This document shows, piece by piece, positions 22,099 through 47,283 of a DNA stretch of 64,000 nt. The position numbers were made by a program, and so were the translations under genes. Source of the DNA: an uncultured Veillonellaceae bacterium (GTDB lineage: Bacteria > Bacillota > Negativicutes > Selenomonadales > Selenomonadaceae); assembly GCA_902801565.1 (NCBI GenBank), contig CADCIX010000010.1, positions 1-64,000 on the forward strand, in the 5' to 3' direction. A model generated the notes under the pieces. That model was not told where the DNA came from and ran no database searches. It saw nothing but the letters and a program-made list of their open reading frames with translations. The number at the start of each line of letters is the position of its first letter. Position 1 is the first letter of the stretch.

Positions 22099-22367
22099 CG
22101 TTGAGAGAAATGCGTTGATTGAGAGAAGTAGGGGTTTGGAATCCTATAGAGAGTTGCGGGGCGGTGGAACGCAGCGGAGGAGGGCCTTGAAATACACTCA
22201 TGAGCAGCGGGCTGAAAGGACAGGCATCTGTCGAAAGTAGGCCTCGCCGGAATGCCCCCGTTAGCAAAGGCTAGGATATGTCAGTATCCAAAAGGAGAGG
22301 CTTGCTTCGGCAAGCAGGGTGGTACCACGGGTATAACAGCTCGTCCCTGTAGAGGGGCGGGCTTTTT
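22099..22367 (+). ncRNA. T-box riboswitch leader, probably tyrosine-specific
   Basis: The hallmark T-box AGGGTGGTACCACGG lies at 22316-22330, directly after a stem III hairpin (GCTTGC-TTCG-GCAAGC, 22300-22315). A GC-rich terminator stem GCTCGTCCC/GGGGCGGGC followed by TTTTT ends at 22367. In the Stem I right arm, TTGAAA-TAC-A at 22187-22196 places TAC (Tyr) at the specifier position. Uncharged tRNA-Tyr would bind, stabilise the antiterminator and allow transcription of aroF-tyrA. The T-box is certain; the specifier reading is by eye and fits the genes. Confidence 0.85.
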
Positions 22368-26352: not shown

Positions 26353-26368
26353 TTTATTGCAAATGAGA

Positions 26369-26488
26369 AAGCTCTTTGAGGCAGGGTGAAATTCCCTACC
26401 GGCGGTACAGCCCGCAAGCCTTTACATTTAGGCATGACCCGGTGTGATTCCGGGGCCGACAGTATAGTCTGGATGAGAAAAGAGTGCT
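26369..26488 (+). ncRNA. FMN riboswitch (RFN element)
   Basis: The conserved RFN segments appear in order: CTTTGAGGCAGGGTGAAAT, CCCTACCGGCGGTACAGCCC, GCAAGCC, GACCCGGTGTGATTCCGGGG, CCGACAGTATAGTCTGGATG and a closing GAGAAAAGAG. FMN binding should favour the terminator at 26517-26545 and switch off the rib genes. Confidence 0.95.
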
Positions 26489-33864: not shown

Positions 33865-34324
33865 CCTGACCACCCTCTGCTATGTGGAGCAGGATGGGAA
33901 ATATCTTATGATGCATCGCATAAAGAAGGAAAATGACATCAACAAGGATAAGTGGGTCGGCATCGGAGGGCACTTTGAGCCGGATGAGTCCCCGGAGGAA
34001 TGCCTCCTGCGGGAGGCAAAAGAGGAAACGGGGCTGGAACTCCTTTCCTATCAACTGCGCGGCATTGTCACGTTCTTGTCTGACGCATGGCAGACGGAGT
34101 ATATGTTCCTCTATACGGCAGACCGTTTTTCCGGTGAGCTTGGGGAATGCAGGGAAGGCGTGCTCGAGTGGGTGCGGAAGGATAAAGTCTGTGAACTGCC
34201 GATATGGGAAGGGGACAAGATATTCTTTCGCTTGCTGGCAGAGGATAGAGGCTTTTTCTCCCTGAAACTTCGCTATGTCGGGGACAGGCTTGTGGAGAAG
34301 GCTCTGGATGGAGTGGAGTTTTGA
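33851..34324 (+). CDS. NUDIX hydrolase (MutT/8-oxo-dGTPase type)
   Basis: 157 residues. The Nudix box is complete: GHFEPDESPEECLLREAKEE followed by TGLEL. The N-terminus TTLCYVEQDGKYLMMHRIKK and WVGIGG fit 8-oxo-dGTP diphosphatases. The start lies inside the upstream gene after GTGAGG. A tandem repeat array begins at the base after its stop codon. Confidence 0.87.
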   Translation: MPKSNLTTLCYVEQDGKYLMMHRIKKENDINKDKWVGIGGHFEPDESPEECLLREAKEETGLELLSYQLRGIVTFLSDAWQTEYMFLYTADRFSGELGECREGVLEWVRKDKVCELPIWEGDKIFFRLLAEDRGFFSLKLRYVGDRLVEKALDGVEF

Positions 34325-34500
34325 TTTTGCCTTTGGCAAAATTTGAACAATGCGTTATGACAGGACAAGCCTGTCGAAACGTTAATTTGTATATTTTGCC
34401 TTTGGCAAAATCTGAACAATGCGTTATGACAGGACAAGCCTGTCGAAACGCAATAATGTATATTTTGCCCTTGGCAAAATTTGAACGCCTGCGTTATAAT
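34325..34500 (+). repeat. 69-bp tandem element array A (two full units and a terminal promoter unit)
   Basis: Units start at 34325, 34394 and 34463, a 69-bp period. Each unit holds palindrome 1 (TTTTGCC-N3-GGCAAAA), a promoter-like core (TTGGCA, 17 bp, TATGAC) and palindrome 2 (GACAGG-acaag-CCTGTC) followed by GAAACG. The third unit diverges after its TTGAAC segment and ends in TATAAT, giving the trmL promoter. Array B at 45317-45526 has the same design with different but still complementary stem bases. Confidence 0.85.
34471..34500 (+). promoter_or_regulatory. Promoter of trmL inside the last repeat unit
   Basis: TTGGCA at 34471-34476 and TATAAT at 34495-34500, spacer 18 bp. The -35 hexamer is part of palindrome 1 of the repeat. 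Confidence 0.65.
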
Positions 34501-34527: not shown

Positions 34528-35010
34528 TTGCATATCGTATTGATTGAACCGGAAATACCGGGAAACACTGGGAATATTGCCCGCCTTTGTGCTGCTACGG
34601 GGATTGAGCTTCATCTTGTGAAGCCTCTGGGATTTTCGACGGATGACAAATATCTGAAACGTGCCGGGCTGGATTATTGGCATCTGGTCAAGGTGCATTA
34701 TCATGAGAATTTCGCGGAGGTTTTGGCATCATATCAGGGTCACGGTTTCCACTACTGCTCGACAAAGGCCCCGCGTTCCTATACGGAAGCATCGTACACG
34801 CCGGAGGATATGCTCGTATTTGGCAAGGAGACGGCGGGGATACCGGAGGATATCCTTTCGGCCCATTGGGAATCCTGTGTCCGGATTCCCATGATTGCAG
34901 AGGCGAGATCCTTGAATCTTTCCAATGCGGTTGCGGTTGTTGCCTATGAGGCGCTCCGGCAGCAGGGATTCCCCGGTTTGATGGAAAATGGTCCCGGGCT
35001 GGCTTTATAA
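34528..35010 (+). CDS. trmL: tRNA (cytidine/uridine-2'-O-)-methyltransferase TrmL
   Basis: 160 residues of the SPOUT class, which methylates the wobble base 34 of tRNA-Leu. HIVLIEPEIPGNTGNIARLC begins the domain; VFGKETAGIPEDIL and IPMIAEARSLNLSNAVAVVA are the trefoil-knot AdoMet motifs (usual form GSLNLSNA). The start is TTG at 34528, six bases after GGGAGG; a nearby ATG at 34523 is out of frame. murB follows after 23 bp. Confidence 0.93.
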   Translation: MHIVLIEPEIPGNTGNIARLCAATGIELHLVKPLGFSTDDKYLKRAGLDYWHLVKVHYHENFAEVLASYQGHGFHYCSTKAPRSYTEASYTPEDMLVFGKETAGIPEDILSAHWESCVRIPMIAEARSLNLSNAVAVVAYEALRQQGFPGLMENGPGLAL

Positions 35011-44500: not shown

Positions 44501-44542
44501 ATGCCAATGCCTACTGGATTTTGCAAGGCATTGGCATTTTTT
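44501..44542. terminator. Terminator between prfC and the DUF4931 gene
   Basis: ATGCCAATGCCT and AGGCATTGGCAT form a perfect 12-bp stem with T/A tails on both sides, between convergent genes. Confidence 0.88.
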
Positions 44543-45300
44543 CAGAAGTATAGCTGCTTCATGTCCCGGACGATCTGCTCCAGATTGTTGGGCAGGAAGT
44601 GGATGTTGTAGCCGATGAAGAGTGGCGAGGTGGCAAAGCGGGGCATGACCTTTGCGAAAAACCTGTCCCCATCGTGGTAGAAGAAGATGTTATAGCTGTT
44701 GCAGCGTTTGTTGAAATGGTGCATTATGTAGTCCACGGAAATCTGCAGGAAGTCGGCAAGGGTGTCGAGGTCGGCTCCCTCCTTGGGAACGATGTTGAGC
44801 TCGCCAAAGCCGACGCGGGGGCAGGTGGAGGCGTTGAGGGTGATGCCGTTCCGTTGGCAGATGACCATTCCCTCGAATTCCCTTGGGGAGAAGAGGAGTT
44901 CGGAGTTTAGGTCAGAAAAGCCGATGAGCTGCATGTGGGGATGGCGGATCGTCCCTCCTGACAAGGGCCCGTAGTTCTTGAAGAAAAGAACATCCTTATA
45001 TTTTCCTGAGGTAAGCATGCGCTTCCAATGGTGCAGACTGAAGCGGATCAGGCGGTGCATGTGTTCAGCCGTGTAATCCGGCATATCGGCATGGCAGATG
45101 TGTCCCTCGATGATGACGAACTGGTCCGCGCCCTCGATGACGTTGTACTTGTTGCGGAGCAGGATGATATCGCCCTCGGTGGCGATGATATCCGTGAGAT
45201 GCTCCACATCACAGAAGGGGCAGTCTGCTTTCCTGTTGATGATGTTTTCCGGCTTCTGGCTTCCCAAGGTTACATCGAAGCCGATGAGGTTGATGTCCAT
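44542..45300 (-). CDS. DUF4931 / galactose-1-phosphate uridylyltransferase-like protein
   Basis: 252 residues. It resembles the HIT/GalT superfamily: Cys pair CPFCDVEHL, VIIEGHICHADMPDYTAEHM, and GPLSGGTIRHPHMQLIGFSD, with the H-x-H pattern of the nucleotidyl-transfer site. The natural substrate is unknown. ATG at 45300 follows AAAGGAG; the open frame continues upstream only because it runs through the repeat array at 45317-45526. Confidence 0.78.
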   Translation of the reverse strand: MDINLIGFDVTLGSQKPENIINRKADCPFCDVEHLTDIIATEGDIILLRNKYNVIEGADQFVIIEGHICHADMPDYTAEHMHRLIRFSLHHWKRMLTSGKYKDVLFFKNYGPLSGGTIRHPHMQLIGFSDLNSELLFSPREFEGMVICQRNGITLNASTCPRVGFGELNIVPKEGADLDTLADFLQISVDYIMHHFNKRCNSYNIFFYHDGDRFFAKVMPRFATSPLFIGYNIHFLPNNLEQIVRDMKQLYF

Positions 45301-45316: not shown

Positions 45317-45526
45317 ATGACGGGATTCCCCGTCGAAACTTTAATCGGTATATTTTGCCCTTGGCAAAATTGGAACAATGAGTTATGACGGAAAAATTCC
45401 GTCGAAACGTAAATCTGAATGTTTTGCCCTTGGCAAAACTTGAACAATGCGTTATGACGGGATTCCCCGTCGAAACTTTAATCGGTATATTTTGCCCTTG
45501 GCAAAATTGGAACAATGAGTTATAAT
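45317..45526 (+). repeat. 69-bp tandem element array B (half unit, two units, terminal promoter unit)
   Basis: Palindrome 1 (TTTTGCCCTTGGCAAAA) starts at 45353, 45422 and 45490, spaced 69 and 68 bp. A half unit precedes it from 45317. Palindrome 2 appears as GACGGG/CCCGTC, GACGGAA/TTCCGTC and GACGGG/CCCGTC, whereas array A has GACAGG/CCTGTC, so paired positions change together. The core TTGGCA-17-TATGAC of inner units becomes TTGGCA-17-TATAAT in the last. It lies between the divergent DUF4931 and flippase genes. Confidence 0.85.
45498..45526 (+). promoter_or_regulatory. Promoter of the flippase gene inside the last repeat unit
   Basis: TTGGCA at 45498-45503 and TATAAT at 45521-45526 with a 17-bp spacer; the inner units carry TATGAC at the same place. 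Confidence 0.65.
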
Positions 45527-45588: not shown

Positions 45589-47283
45589 TTGCAAAAAGAA
45601 GTCGATAAAGCTAGGACGGTGTTTTCGATTAGCAGCCAAAACGGTTCGGACAAGAAGGCCAGCAAGGGAGAGTCGTTCCTGAAGGGGACGCTCATCCTCA
45701 CCGTCGCTGGGTTTGTGGTCAAGGTCATCGGGTCCCTCAACTGGATTTTTGTTTCCCGTATCCTTGGCGGTGAGGGAATCGGCCTTTACCAGATGGCCTT
45801 CCCCATCTATTTTTTTGCAATGACGGTTTCCCAGGCAGGGGTTCCGGTCGCCATATCCATCATCACGGCAGAGCGTGTGGCTCTCAAGGACATCTATGGC
45901 GCAAAGCGGGTCTTTCGTATCTCCATGGCGTTGATGCTTGTCACGGGACTGGTGTTCTCGTTCCTGACGTATTTCGGCGCGCAATGGCTCATCGACTGGC
46001 ACTTCATCCGCGATCCCCGCGCCTATATGTCCATGGTGGTACTGGCTCCTACCGTGTTCTTTGTGACGTTTCTTGCAAGTTCCCGCGGCTACCTGCAGGG
46101 CTGGCAGCGCATGACACCCACGGCGGTTTCCCAGATCGTGGAGCAGATTTTCCGCGTCATCACGATGATCGTGCTGGCGAATCTTTTGTTGCCCTGGGGA
46201 TTGGAATATGCTTCGGCAGGCGCGAGCCTCGGTGCTTTGGCGGGTGCGGTGACAGGTCTTATCGTGCTCGTCTATTACCATATCCGGTTGGACAGGGATA
46301 TTGAACGGGATTATGGGCATGTGCTGGAGCCGACGCCGGAAACCAAAGGTGAGACGAGCTGGCAGATCATCAAGCGTATCTTTGCGTTGTCCTTGCCCGT
46401 GTCGGCAGCAAGCATCATGTTGCCGGTGGTTTCCAACCTGGACCTCATGATCGTGCCGCAGAGGCTGGAGGTTGCAGGCTATTCCGTCAACCAGGCCACG
46501 GAGCTTTTCGGTTATCTTACGGGCATGGCGGTTCCCCTGGTGAACCTGGCCACGATCCTTACGGCTTCCATGGCCATGAGCATCGTGCCGGCGATTTCCG
46601 AGGCGCGGGCATTGAAGCAGAAGGACAGGGTTTACAGCCAGACGGCTTCTTCTGTGCGCATATCCAATTTCGTATGCTTTCCGGCCTTTGTGATTGTGTT
46701 CGTGTTAGCGACGCCCATTGCGTCCTTGATCTACAACGCACCGGGAGCCGGTCCCGCCGTGATGATCTCTGCCGTGAGCATTGTGCTCCTGGGCTTGCAT
46801 CAGGTGTCGACAGCCGTCCTGCAAGGCCTGGGCCATACGAAGATTCCCATGGTGAACATGGTCTTGGCGGCGGTGGCGAAGGTCATACTGAACTGGACCT
46901 TGACTGCCCAGCCCTGGCTGGGAATCATGGGAGCTGCCTGGGCGACGGCAGCGGATATGGGCGTGGCGGCGTTTATCAATCTCTACTTTATTTATCGGTA
47001 CATCGGTTATCGTATTGAGATTCCCCAGCTTCTGAAGACTGTGGGAGCAGCCGCGGTCATGGCCGTCTCGGTGAAGTTTTTCTATGATTTCACCATGGCG
47101 CAGTGGGCCATGGGAACGTTTTCTACCTTTGGGGCGGTCTTTGTTGGCTGTGTCGTCTATCTGGTGACCCTTGTTCTCATCGGCGGCATCCGTGAGGAGG
47201 ATGTTCAGCGCATCCCGATGATCGGGAAGTTTTTCATTCGCGGCTTGCGCCGGATCGGCGTCTTCAAGTCTCGGGAGGGTTGA
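45589..47283 (+). CDS. MurJ/SpoVB-family lipid flippase (polysaccharide biosynthesis protein)
   Basis: 564 residues with about 14 membrane helices, MVF/MOP superfamily. SFLKGTLILTVAGFVVKVIG and FVSRILGGEGIGLYQMAFPI are typical of SpoVB/MurJ-like flippases that turn lipid-linked cell-envelope precursors. ASSRGYLQGWQRMTPTAVSQ is a second conserved block. The start is uncertain: TTG at 45589 gives the longest frame but lacks a ribosome binding site; GTG at 45619 has only a close AGGA. A lipid-kinase gene follows after 2 bp. Confidence 0.82.
   Translation: MQKEVDKARTVFSISSQNGSDKKASKGESFLKGTLILTVAGFVVKVIGSLNWIFVSRILGGEGIGLYQMAFPIYFFAMTVSQAGVPVAISIITAERVALKDIYGAKRVFRISMALMLVTGLVFSFLTYFGAQWLIDWHFIRDPRAYMSMVVLAPTVFFVTFLASSRGYLQGWQRMTPTAVSQIVEQIFRVITMIVLANLLLPWGLEYASAGASLGALAGAVTGLIVLVYYHIRLDRDIERDYGHVLEPTPETKGETSWQIIKRIFALSLPVSAASIMLPVVSNLDLMIVPQRLEVAGYSVNQATELFGYLTGMAVPLVNLATILTASMAMSIVPAISEARALKQKDRVYSQTASSVRISNFVCFPAFVIVFVLATPIASLIYNAPGAGPAVMISAVSIVLLGLHQVSTAVLQGLGHTKIPMVNMVLAAVAKVILNWTLTAQPWLGIMGAAWATAADMGVAAFINLYFIYRYIGYRIEIPQLLKTVGAAAVMAVSVKFFYDFTMAQWAMGTFSTFGAVFVGCVVYLVTLVLIGGIREEDVQRIPMIGKFFIRGLRRIGVFKSREG

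What the first reader, a model, noticed from the sequence alone, without database searches (positions are those of the whole stretch)
45317..45526. Array B of the same element with compensatory changes in its hairpin
Eleven kilobases away, between divergent genes, the same units recur, but palindrome 2 is GACGGG/CCCGTC or GACGGAA/TTCCGTC instead of GACAGG/CCTGTC. Both arms change together between loci and even between units in one array, so selection or copying keeps the fold rather than the sequence. This implies a structure read as RNA or single-stranded DNA. The last unit again becomes a TTGGCA-17-TATAAT promoter, here for a flippase.
Basis: seen in the sequence. Interest (0 to 1): 0.8.

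Follow-up and report, generated by a model that had tools for sequence, protein, structure and literature searches.

The report
Tiny mobile element that rebuilds promoters
The repeats are worn copies of a small mobile DNA element that jumps into the sequence TATAA, which includes the core of bacterial promoters, and brings a replacement promoter half with it; its matching hairpin arms are most likely kept matching by DNA copying errors, not by a working RNA.

Summary
Array B (45317-45526) is three 68-69 nt units ending in TTGGCA-17-TATAAT. Palindrome-2 arms covary strongly (13 two-sided changes, no one-sided ones; 0 of 500 shuffles match). There are about 59 such promoter ends in this genome. 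The family is Selenomonadaceae; outside it nothing was found in the 16 genomes of the class searched.

The decisive evidence came from a relative, G062. It carries at least 34 complete copies, nine of them identical, of a ~131 nt two-hairpin element inserted in TATAA. TATAA stands on both sides, and one site is empty in ten genus-mates. This is a MITE-like mobile element. Its right end carries a -35 (TTGGCA) 17-18 nt before the duplicated TATAA, so a copy landing in a -10 box TATAAT swaps the promoter's upstream half but keeps the -10. In G062, 16 of 37 copies are followed by TATAAT; in the window genome 35 of 36 non-internal ones are, so promoter copies seem selectively kept.

The paired arms are best explained by template-switch copying. 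One young copy differs from its siblings by a left arm replaced with the reverse complement of its own right arm (70, 87), and left-truncated copies lose pairing only in the non-promoter arm (45). No RAYT is present. The transposase is unknown.

The parts
45317..45526 (+). Array B: three tandem shortened copies of the element, left part worn, right end at the -10 box
45319..45334 (+). Palindrome 2 (shortened helix A), unit 1: GACGGGATTCCCCGTC
45353..45369 (+). Palindrome 1 (tip of helix B), unit 1
45387..45403 (+). Palindrome 2, unit 2: GACGGAAAAATTCCGTC
45422..45438 (+). Palindrome 1, unit 2
45456..45471 (+). Palindrome 2, unit 3
45490..45506 (+). Palindrome 1, unit 3; its right arm holds the -35
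45498..45503 (+). -35 TTGGCA supplied by the element
45521..45526 (+). -10 TATAAT; aligns with the native -10 of relatives without the array (L092 TATAATGGCAATCGTCGATATGTA, window TATAATTGCATTCGTTGATATGTA)
45589..47283 (+). Flippase-like gene (Polysacc_synt, PF01943) downstream of array B
44542..45300 (-). Divergent gene whose ribosome-binding site abuts the left end of array B
34324..34500 (+). Array A: same element, P1 at 34325, 34394, 34463; P2 at 34359, 34428; -35 34471-34476, -10 34495-34500 (spacing 18)
34528..35007 (+). SpoU/TrmL-type methyltransferase gene downstream of array A

Best explanation
Arrays A and B are old, shortened, tandem copies of a non-autonomous mobile element (MITE-like) of Selenomonadaceae. 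The complete form (relative G062) is about 131 nt and consists of two adjacent hairpins: helix A (AACGAGGC..GCCTCGTT, reduced here to palindrome 2) and helix B (AACGCC..GGCGTT, tipped by palindrome 1). It inserts at TATAA so that TATAA stands on both sides (shown in G062). The right end carries TTGGCA 17-18 nt before the right-hand TATAA, so a copy that lands in a -10 box TATAAT leaves that -10 in place and replaces the rest of the promoter (anatomy shown, expression inferred). Copies that become promoters are kept while their left side erodes; copies elsewhere are lost (inferred from the contrast between a young and an old population). Arrays grow by new insertions at the re-created target and by local duplication (inferred). 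The complementary arms are kept matched mainly by replication template-switch (quasi-palindrome) copying of one arm onto the other, not by selection on an RNA (direct example in one young copy; inferred for palindrome 2).
For: Mobility and target: at least 34 complete copies in G062, nine identical and 23 with at most 2 differences. In the 37 with a canonical right end it is TTATAA followed by T16/A13/G5/C3, and left ends are TATAA with few exceptions. One filled site (L287) is empty in ten genus-mates, contiguous across the junction, with the stop-codon frame of the neighbouring gene kept (my reading of the frame). Promoter anchoring: at the flippase, ctsR, flagellin and ompH-like loci the element-bearing genome and element-free relatives align at the same -10 TATAAT. 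In the window genome, 55 of 59 terminal ends are TATAAT and the spacing is 17 (47) or 18 (12). A ribosome-binding site with start codon and ORF follows in 24 of 35, against 7 of 33 mirror and 19% random positions. 18 of 20 downstream ORFs tested are Pfam proteins. Retention: TATAAT after 35/36 non-internal ends in the window genome against 16/38 in G062, Fisher p 1e-7. Arm copying: L292, L243, L271, L295, L200, L277, L297 have left arms that mirror their own right arms, 9-14 of 14 nt where other units have at most 8. Template switching as a source of compensatory changes is described in PMC8794818.
Against: No transposase or autonomous copy was found. Promoter activity is untested. The exact duplication length is ambiguous (TATAA in most, ATAA in three; in the window genome left ends read TAT-GAC). 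At array B the native -35 region left of the array is missing, so that insertion is not clean by itself. Units 1 and 3 of array B are identical, which points to local duplication as well as insertion. For palindrome 2 the copying mechanism is inferred from the pattern only. Insertion in G062 is not confined to promoters.
Confidence: 0.77

Rival explanations
1. Structured RNA or single-stranded DNA under selection: hairpins are functional and compensatory changes are selected pair by pair.
For: Strong covariation of palindrome 2; palindrome 1 also has double changes such as TTTTTCC/GGAAAAA and TTTCGCC/GGCGAAA.
Against: No one-sided or G-U intermediates in the stems counted. The non-promoter arm decays in truncated copies. 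Young copies carry uncompensated stem changes and one block replacement of an arm. In the last unit both palindromes lie upstream of the predicted start site. No Rfam match.
Confidence: 0.12
2. REPIN/RAYT-type or IS200/IS605-type element mobilised by a Y1 tyrosine transposase acting on single-stranded hairpins.
For: Two adjacent hairpins next to a short fixed target; Y1_Tnp genes occur in several carriers.
Against: Y1_Tnp absent from the window genome, G001, G002, G023, G051 and G146, which all carry the element; G062, with the fresh expansion, has only a fragment with a stop. Thirty Y1 loci show no element ends (the one short match is a terminator hairpin). No GTAG or similar unpaired tag.
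Confidence: 0.1
3. Not mobile: an array of operator/promoter sites of one regulator (a regulon) spread by point mutation and tandem duplication.
For: In the window genome nearly every copy is a promoter in the right orientation.
Against: Identical copies at unrelated sites with TATAA on both sides and an empty site in relatives. Downstream genes are functionally unrelated (trmL, leuS, murI, folE, ctsR, flagellin and others). The palindrome sequence itself varies.
Confidence: 0.03

Closest known systems
Correia repeat enclosed elements (CREE) of Neisseria
   Same: Short non-autonomous inverted-repeat element; a -35 and partial -10 at the end nearest the gene, completed on insertion at TA (Black promoter; PMC2649163).
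   Different: Other sequence and host group; the target here is TATAA rather than TA; two unequal hairpins instead of long terminal inverted repeats. In gonococcus only 18 potential Black promoters were counted (71-76 CREE lie 5' of genes), whereas nearly all old copies here have a full -10.
Pneumococcal BOX elements
   Same: Modular, hairpin-rich repeats with a module in variable tandem number (PMC3049150).
   Different: No boxA/B/C sequence; here the whole unit repeats and the end regenerates a -10 box.
REP/REPIN with RAYT transposases
   Same: Short palindromes in pairs, many intergenic copies.
   Different: No GTAG tag and no RAYT (PMC3733652).
Template-switch / quasi-palindrome mutation
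   Same: One arm overwritten by the complement of the other; multi-base compensatory change in one event (PMC8794818).
   Different: There described for RNA genes across life; here seen in a dispersed mobile element with sibling copies as reference.

Membership tests
MITE (non-autonomous transposable element) | Short element without coding capacity, many near-identical copies at unrelated sites | tested here: met
   At least 34 complete ~131-nt copies in G062, nine identical
MITE (non-autonomous transposable element) | Target-site duplication and empty site | tested here: met
   TATAA on both sides; empty in ten relatives at one site
MITE (non-autonomous transposable element) | Terminal inverted repeats | tested here: inconclusive
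   Only TAACG/CGTTA shared at the ends, overlapping the target; no long TIR
MITE (non-autonomous transposable element) | Shares ends with an autonomous IS in the host or relatives | tested here: inconclusive
   Left ends in G062 nearly all pair with right ends, no solitary long element found; 30 Y1 loci have no element ends
REP/RAYT | Linked Y1 tyrosine transposase in the genome | tested here: not met
   PF01797 absent from G000, G001, G002, G023; only a broken remnant in G062
Correia element | Correia terminal repeat TATAG[CT]GGATTAA | tested here: not met
   Ends read TATAACGAGG / GGCGTTATAA; motif from PMC2649163
Correia element (works like) | -35 in the element and -10 completed at the insertion site | tested here: met
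   TTGGCA-17/18-TATAAT type at 55 of 59 terminal ends; activity not tested
Structured RNA family | Match to an Rfam family | tested here: not met
   No match over the arrays at gathering score; only sub-threshold chance hits in related loci
Structured RNA family | Transcribed and processed RNA | not testable with these tools
   No expression data

The most novel reading that the evidence does not exclude
A mobile element family that uses the -10 box as a preferred landing site and regenerates it while importing its own -35, so that insertion is promoter-preserving. Dozens of housekeeping genes (leuS, serS, ftsH, murI, ctsR and others) in a bacterium have thereby been rewired onto one selfish promoter. 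Its hairpin arms covary by replication template switching without selection, a natural false positive for covariation-based RNA discovery.
Probability: 0.5. Interest if true: 0.72.

Novelty: new variant of a known kind. Interest (0 to 1): 0.6.

Why it matters
If right, a large set of essential genes in rumen Selenomonadaceae depends on promoters donated by a selfish element whose insertion rule keeps each gene expressed, a clear and testable case of wholesale promoter replacement. It also gives a documented example, with near-identical sibling copies as reference, of compensatory stem changes made by DNA copying, a caution for using covariation alone as proof of functional RNA.

Tried and rejected
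A RAYT or other Y1 transposase as partner: PF01797 scans in the window genome and relatives; 30 Y1 loci searched for element ends, one short match being an unrelated terminator hairpin. Rfam at gathering and permissive thresholds: nothing over the arrays. An exact-pattern scan of genome contigs with the window-genome form found nothing, perhaps because near records are withheld, so the flippase protein was used for named relatives. Simple ORF length as a test for downstream genes was dropped because random positions scored 70-87%; replaced by ribosome-binding site plus start codon. An early idea that the element targets only -10 boxes was dropped after an unbiased pattern showed 16 of 37 TATAAT in G062; early pattern searches had required TATAA. 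Viral contigs and phage records: no match; plasmids: one, in Selenomonas ruminantium TAM6421 pSRC1. Paper searches found no description of this repeat. CGTC-tagged REPs were considered and not adopted: their tag is unpaired, whereas the GACG/CGTC here is paired.

Full report
WHAT IS THERE. Array B (45317-45526) consists of three 68-69 nt units, each with palindrome 2 (GACGGG..CCCGTC or GACGGAA..TTCCGTC) and palindrome 1 (TTTTGCCCTTGGCAAAA). The last unit ends in TTGGCA-17-TATAAT, 62 nt before a TTG start of a flippase-like gene. Array A is the same element with GACAGG..CCTGTC and spacing 18. The genome (G000, 2.7 Mb draft) has 49 BLAST-level copies, 77 exact right ends against 0 for the reversed control and 59 terminal ends in the stretches I fetched.

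PLACE IN THE FAMILY. Related copies occur in scattered genera of one family; nothing was found in the 16 genomes from other families of the class that were searched. The exact promoter end was found in 47 of 151 family genomes, with no match to the reversed control. Named relatives of the flippase locus are Selenomonadaceae, mostly rumen Selenomonas and uncultured relatives. Most of the flippase loci examined have no element.

COVARIATION IS REAL. Over 17 distinct 17-nt palindrome-2 sequences from three genomes, 98% of cells pair, 13 cells are changed on both sides and none on one side only; 0 of 500 shuffles reach this, and slid controls collapse. A separate permutation gave 49 of 51 paired against a mean of 30.7, maximum 43 in 20,000. 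Outside this set the stems also differ in length and sequence (GACGAGGCA, GACACGG, GACGAAAC) yet pair. 8 of 49 palindrome-2 copies have a mismatch in the outer six pairs.

WHAT THE ELEMENT IS. A pattern survey turned up G062, where the element has expanded very recently. At least 34 complete copies were read; nine are identical and 23 differ from the consensus at two positions or fewer. The complete form is TATAA-CGAGGCAAGAAAATGTCCCCCACCTCAGCAGGTGGGGGCACGAATACCAAAACAGGCGGCGAGCATATCTCCCGCCTCGTTGAAACGCCAAGAGGAAGTTTTGCCTATGGCAAAACTGGAACAACGGCGT-TATAA. Folded as RNA it gives two side-by-side hairpins. Palindrome 2 of the window genome corresponds to helix A with its inner part lost; palindrome 1 is the tip of helix B. 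L046 in the window genome keeps a near-complete copy. A 24-nt insert (GCGAAGCGAAGCTAGTCCTTTAGG) marks a sub-family in G062, and a related, longer nested module occurs in the window genome (L020, L029, L030, L041).

TARGET. An unbiased pattern that stops before the target found 42 ends in G062. Of 38 read, 37 continue TTATAA, followed by T 16, A 13, G 5 and C 3; left ends read TATAA apart from three with xATAA. The L287 site is empty in ten genus-mates and aligns across the junction. By my reading of the frame, the relatives' convergent gene ends ..AGA ATA TAA where the joined flanks give ..AGA TTA TAA, which fits one TATAA in the native site. That site is not a promoter. The target is therefore the sequence TATAA, which -10 boxes contain. 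The duplication length (4 or 5) cannot be fixed because the element ends resemble the target; in the window genome internal junctions read TAT-GAC.

WHY NEARLY EVERY OLD COPY IS A PROMOTER. In the window genome 35 of 36 non-internal ends found with the same unbiased pattern are followed by TATAAT, against 16 of 38 in G062 (Fisher p 1e-7). Ribosome-binding site plus start codon plus ORF lies within 150 nt downstream in 24 of 35, against 7 of 33 mirror positions and 19% of random positions. In G062 the figures are 7 of 16 (TATAAT), 6 of 21 (other), 1 of 16 (mirror) and 11% (random). 18 of 20 downstream ORFs tested have Pfam families. At several loci relatives lacking the element show a native promoter whose TATAAT aligns with the element's: flippase, ctsR in G004 and G022, where the distance to GTCAAATAGTCAATGA is kept, flagellin in G001 and G002, and an ompH-like gene. 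I infer that copies landing in a -10 box are kept as promoters and that useless sequence to their left is deleted; many arrays abut an upstream stop codon or ribosome-binding site, array B included.

WHY THE ARMS MATCH. Three observations favour copying over selection. First, among 34 young copies in G062 most differences are single and uncompensated, while L292 differs by one block: its left arm became the reverse complement of its own right arm. Similar mirrored arms are in L243, L271, L295, L200, L277 and L297; over 122 units the 14-nt arm flanks match at 9-14 positions in nine units and at no more than 8 in the rest. In L277 and L295 the mirroring includes the -10, giving a bidirectional promoter-like palindrome. 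Second, in truncated old copies the stem is perfect in only 9 of 19, and where one arm alone departs it is the left, non-promoter arm; complete copies are perfect in 36 of 39 and internal units in 14 of 16 (my count after removing false hits). Third, there are no one-sided intermediates. Template switching as a maker of compensatory changes is published (PMC8794818). For palindrome 2 of arrays A and B the inference is by analogy, since no parent copy is at hand.

ENZYME. PF01797 is absent from the window genome and several carriers and only a broken piece is left in G062. Element ends were not found around 30 Y1 loci. In G062 left ends nearly all pair with right ends; of four variant left ends only one was followed up (L279), and no further element end or transposase was evident there. 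The mobilising enzyme is unknown.

RELATION TO KNOWN ELEMENTS. Neisserial Correia elements carry a -35 and partial -10 that insertion can complete (PMC2649163), so promoter creation by a MITE is known. What differs is the TATAA target, the two-hairpin anatomy, the near-complete conversion of surviving copies into promoters, and the visible arm copying. I rate it a new variant of a known kind.

LIMITS. No expression data; draft genomes; most genome identifiers are unnamed; the age argument compares two species only; array B lacks a clean left junction, and its identical units 1 and 3 show local duplication as well.

Noticed in passing
window 22106-22351 and 26368-26488: T-box leader and FMN riboswitch (Rfam), ordinary for this group.
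   Followed up: no
L020 1990-2215, L029, L030, L041, L061: A second module nested in many copies: short form TCCCC..GGGGACTAG..CTTCGCGTCG and a ~200-nt foldback form with inverted ends CTAGTGTCCCGCCTCGTTC, in either arm of the element.
   Followed up: partly
L277 (window genome C38) and L295 (G143 C32): Near-perfect palindromes carrying inverted -10 boxes on both sides; in L277 divergent genes flank it, so one element looks like a bidirectional promoter.
   Followed up: partly
L035 (rpiB leader, window genome C9): TATAATATGAACGCTTAGCGAAGACA occurs twice, about 85 nt apart, the upstream copy directly at the element's right end; looks like a duplicated native promoter.
   Followed up: no
L113, L120, L122 (Selenomonas flippase leaders): Element copies in antisense orientation in the leader; L120 also has a sense copy that is an almost perfect ~48-nt palindrome directly before TATAAT.
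   Followed up: partly
L367 2501-2640 (plasmid pSRC1, Selenomonas ruminantium TAM6421): A copy of the complete element (80% identical to the G062 form) upstream of a pyridoxamine 5'-phosphate oxidase family gene; an unannotated region in a named strain.
   Followed up: partly
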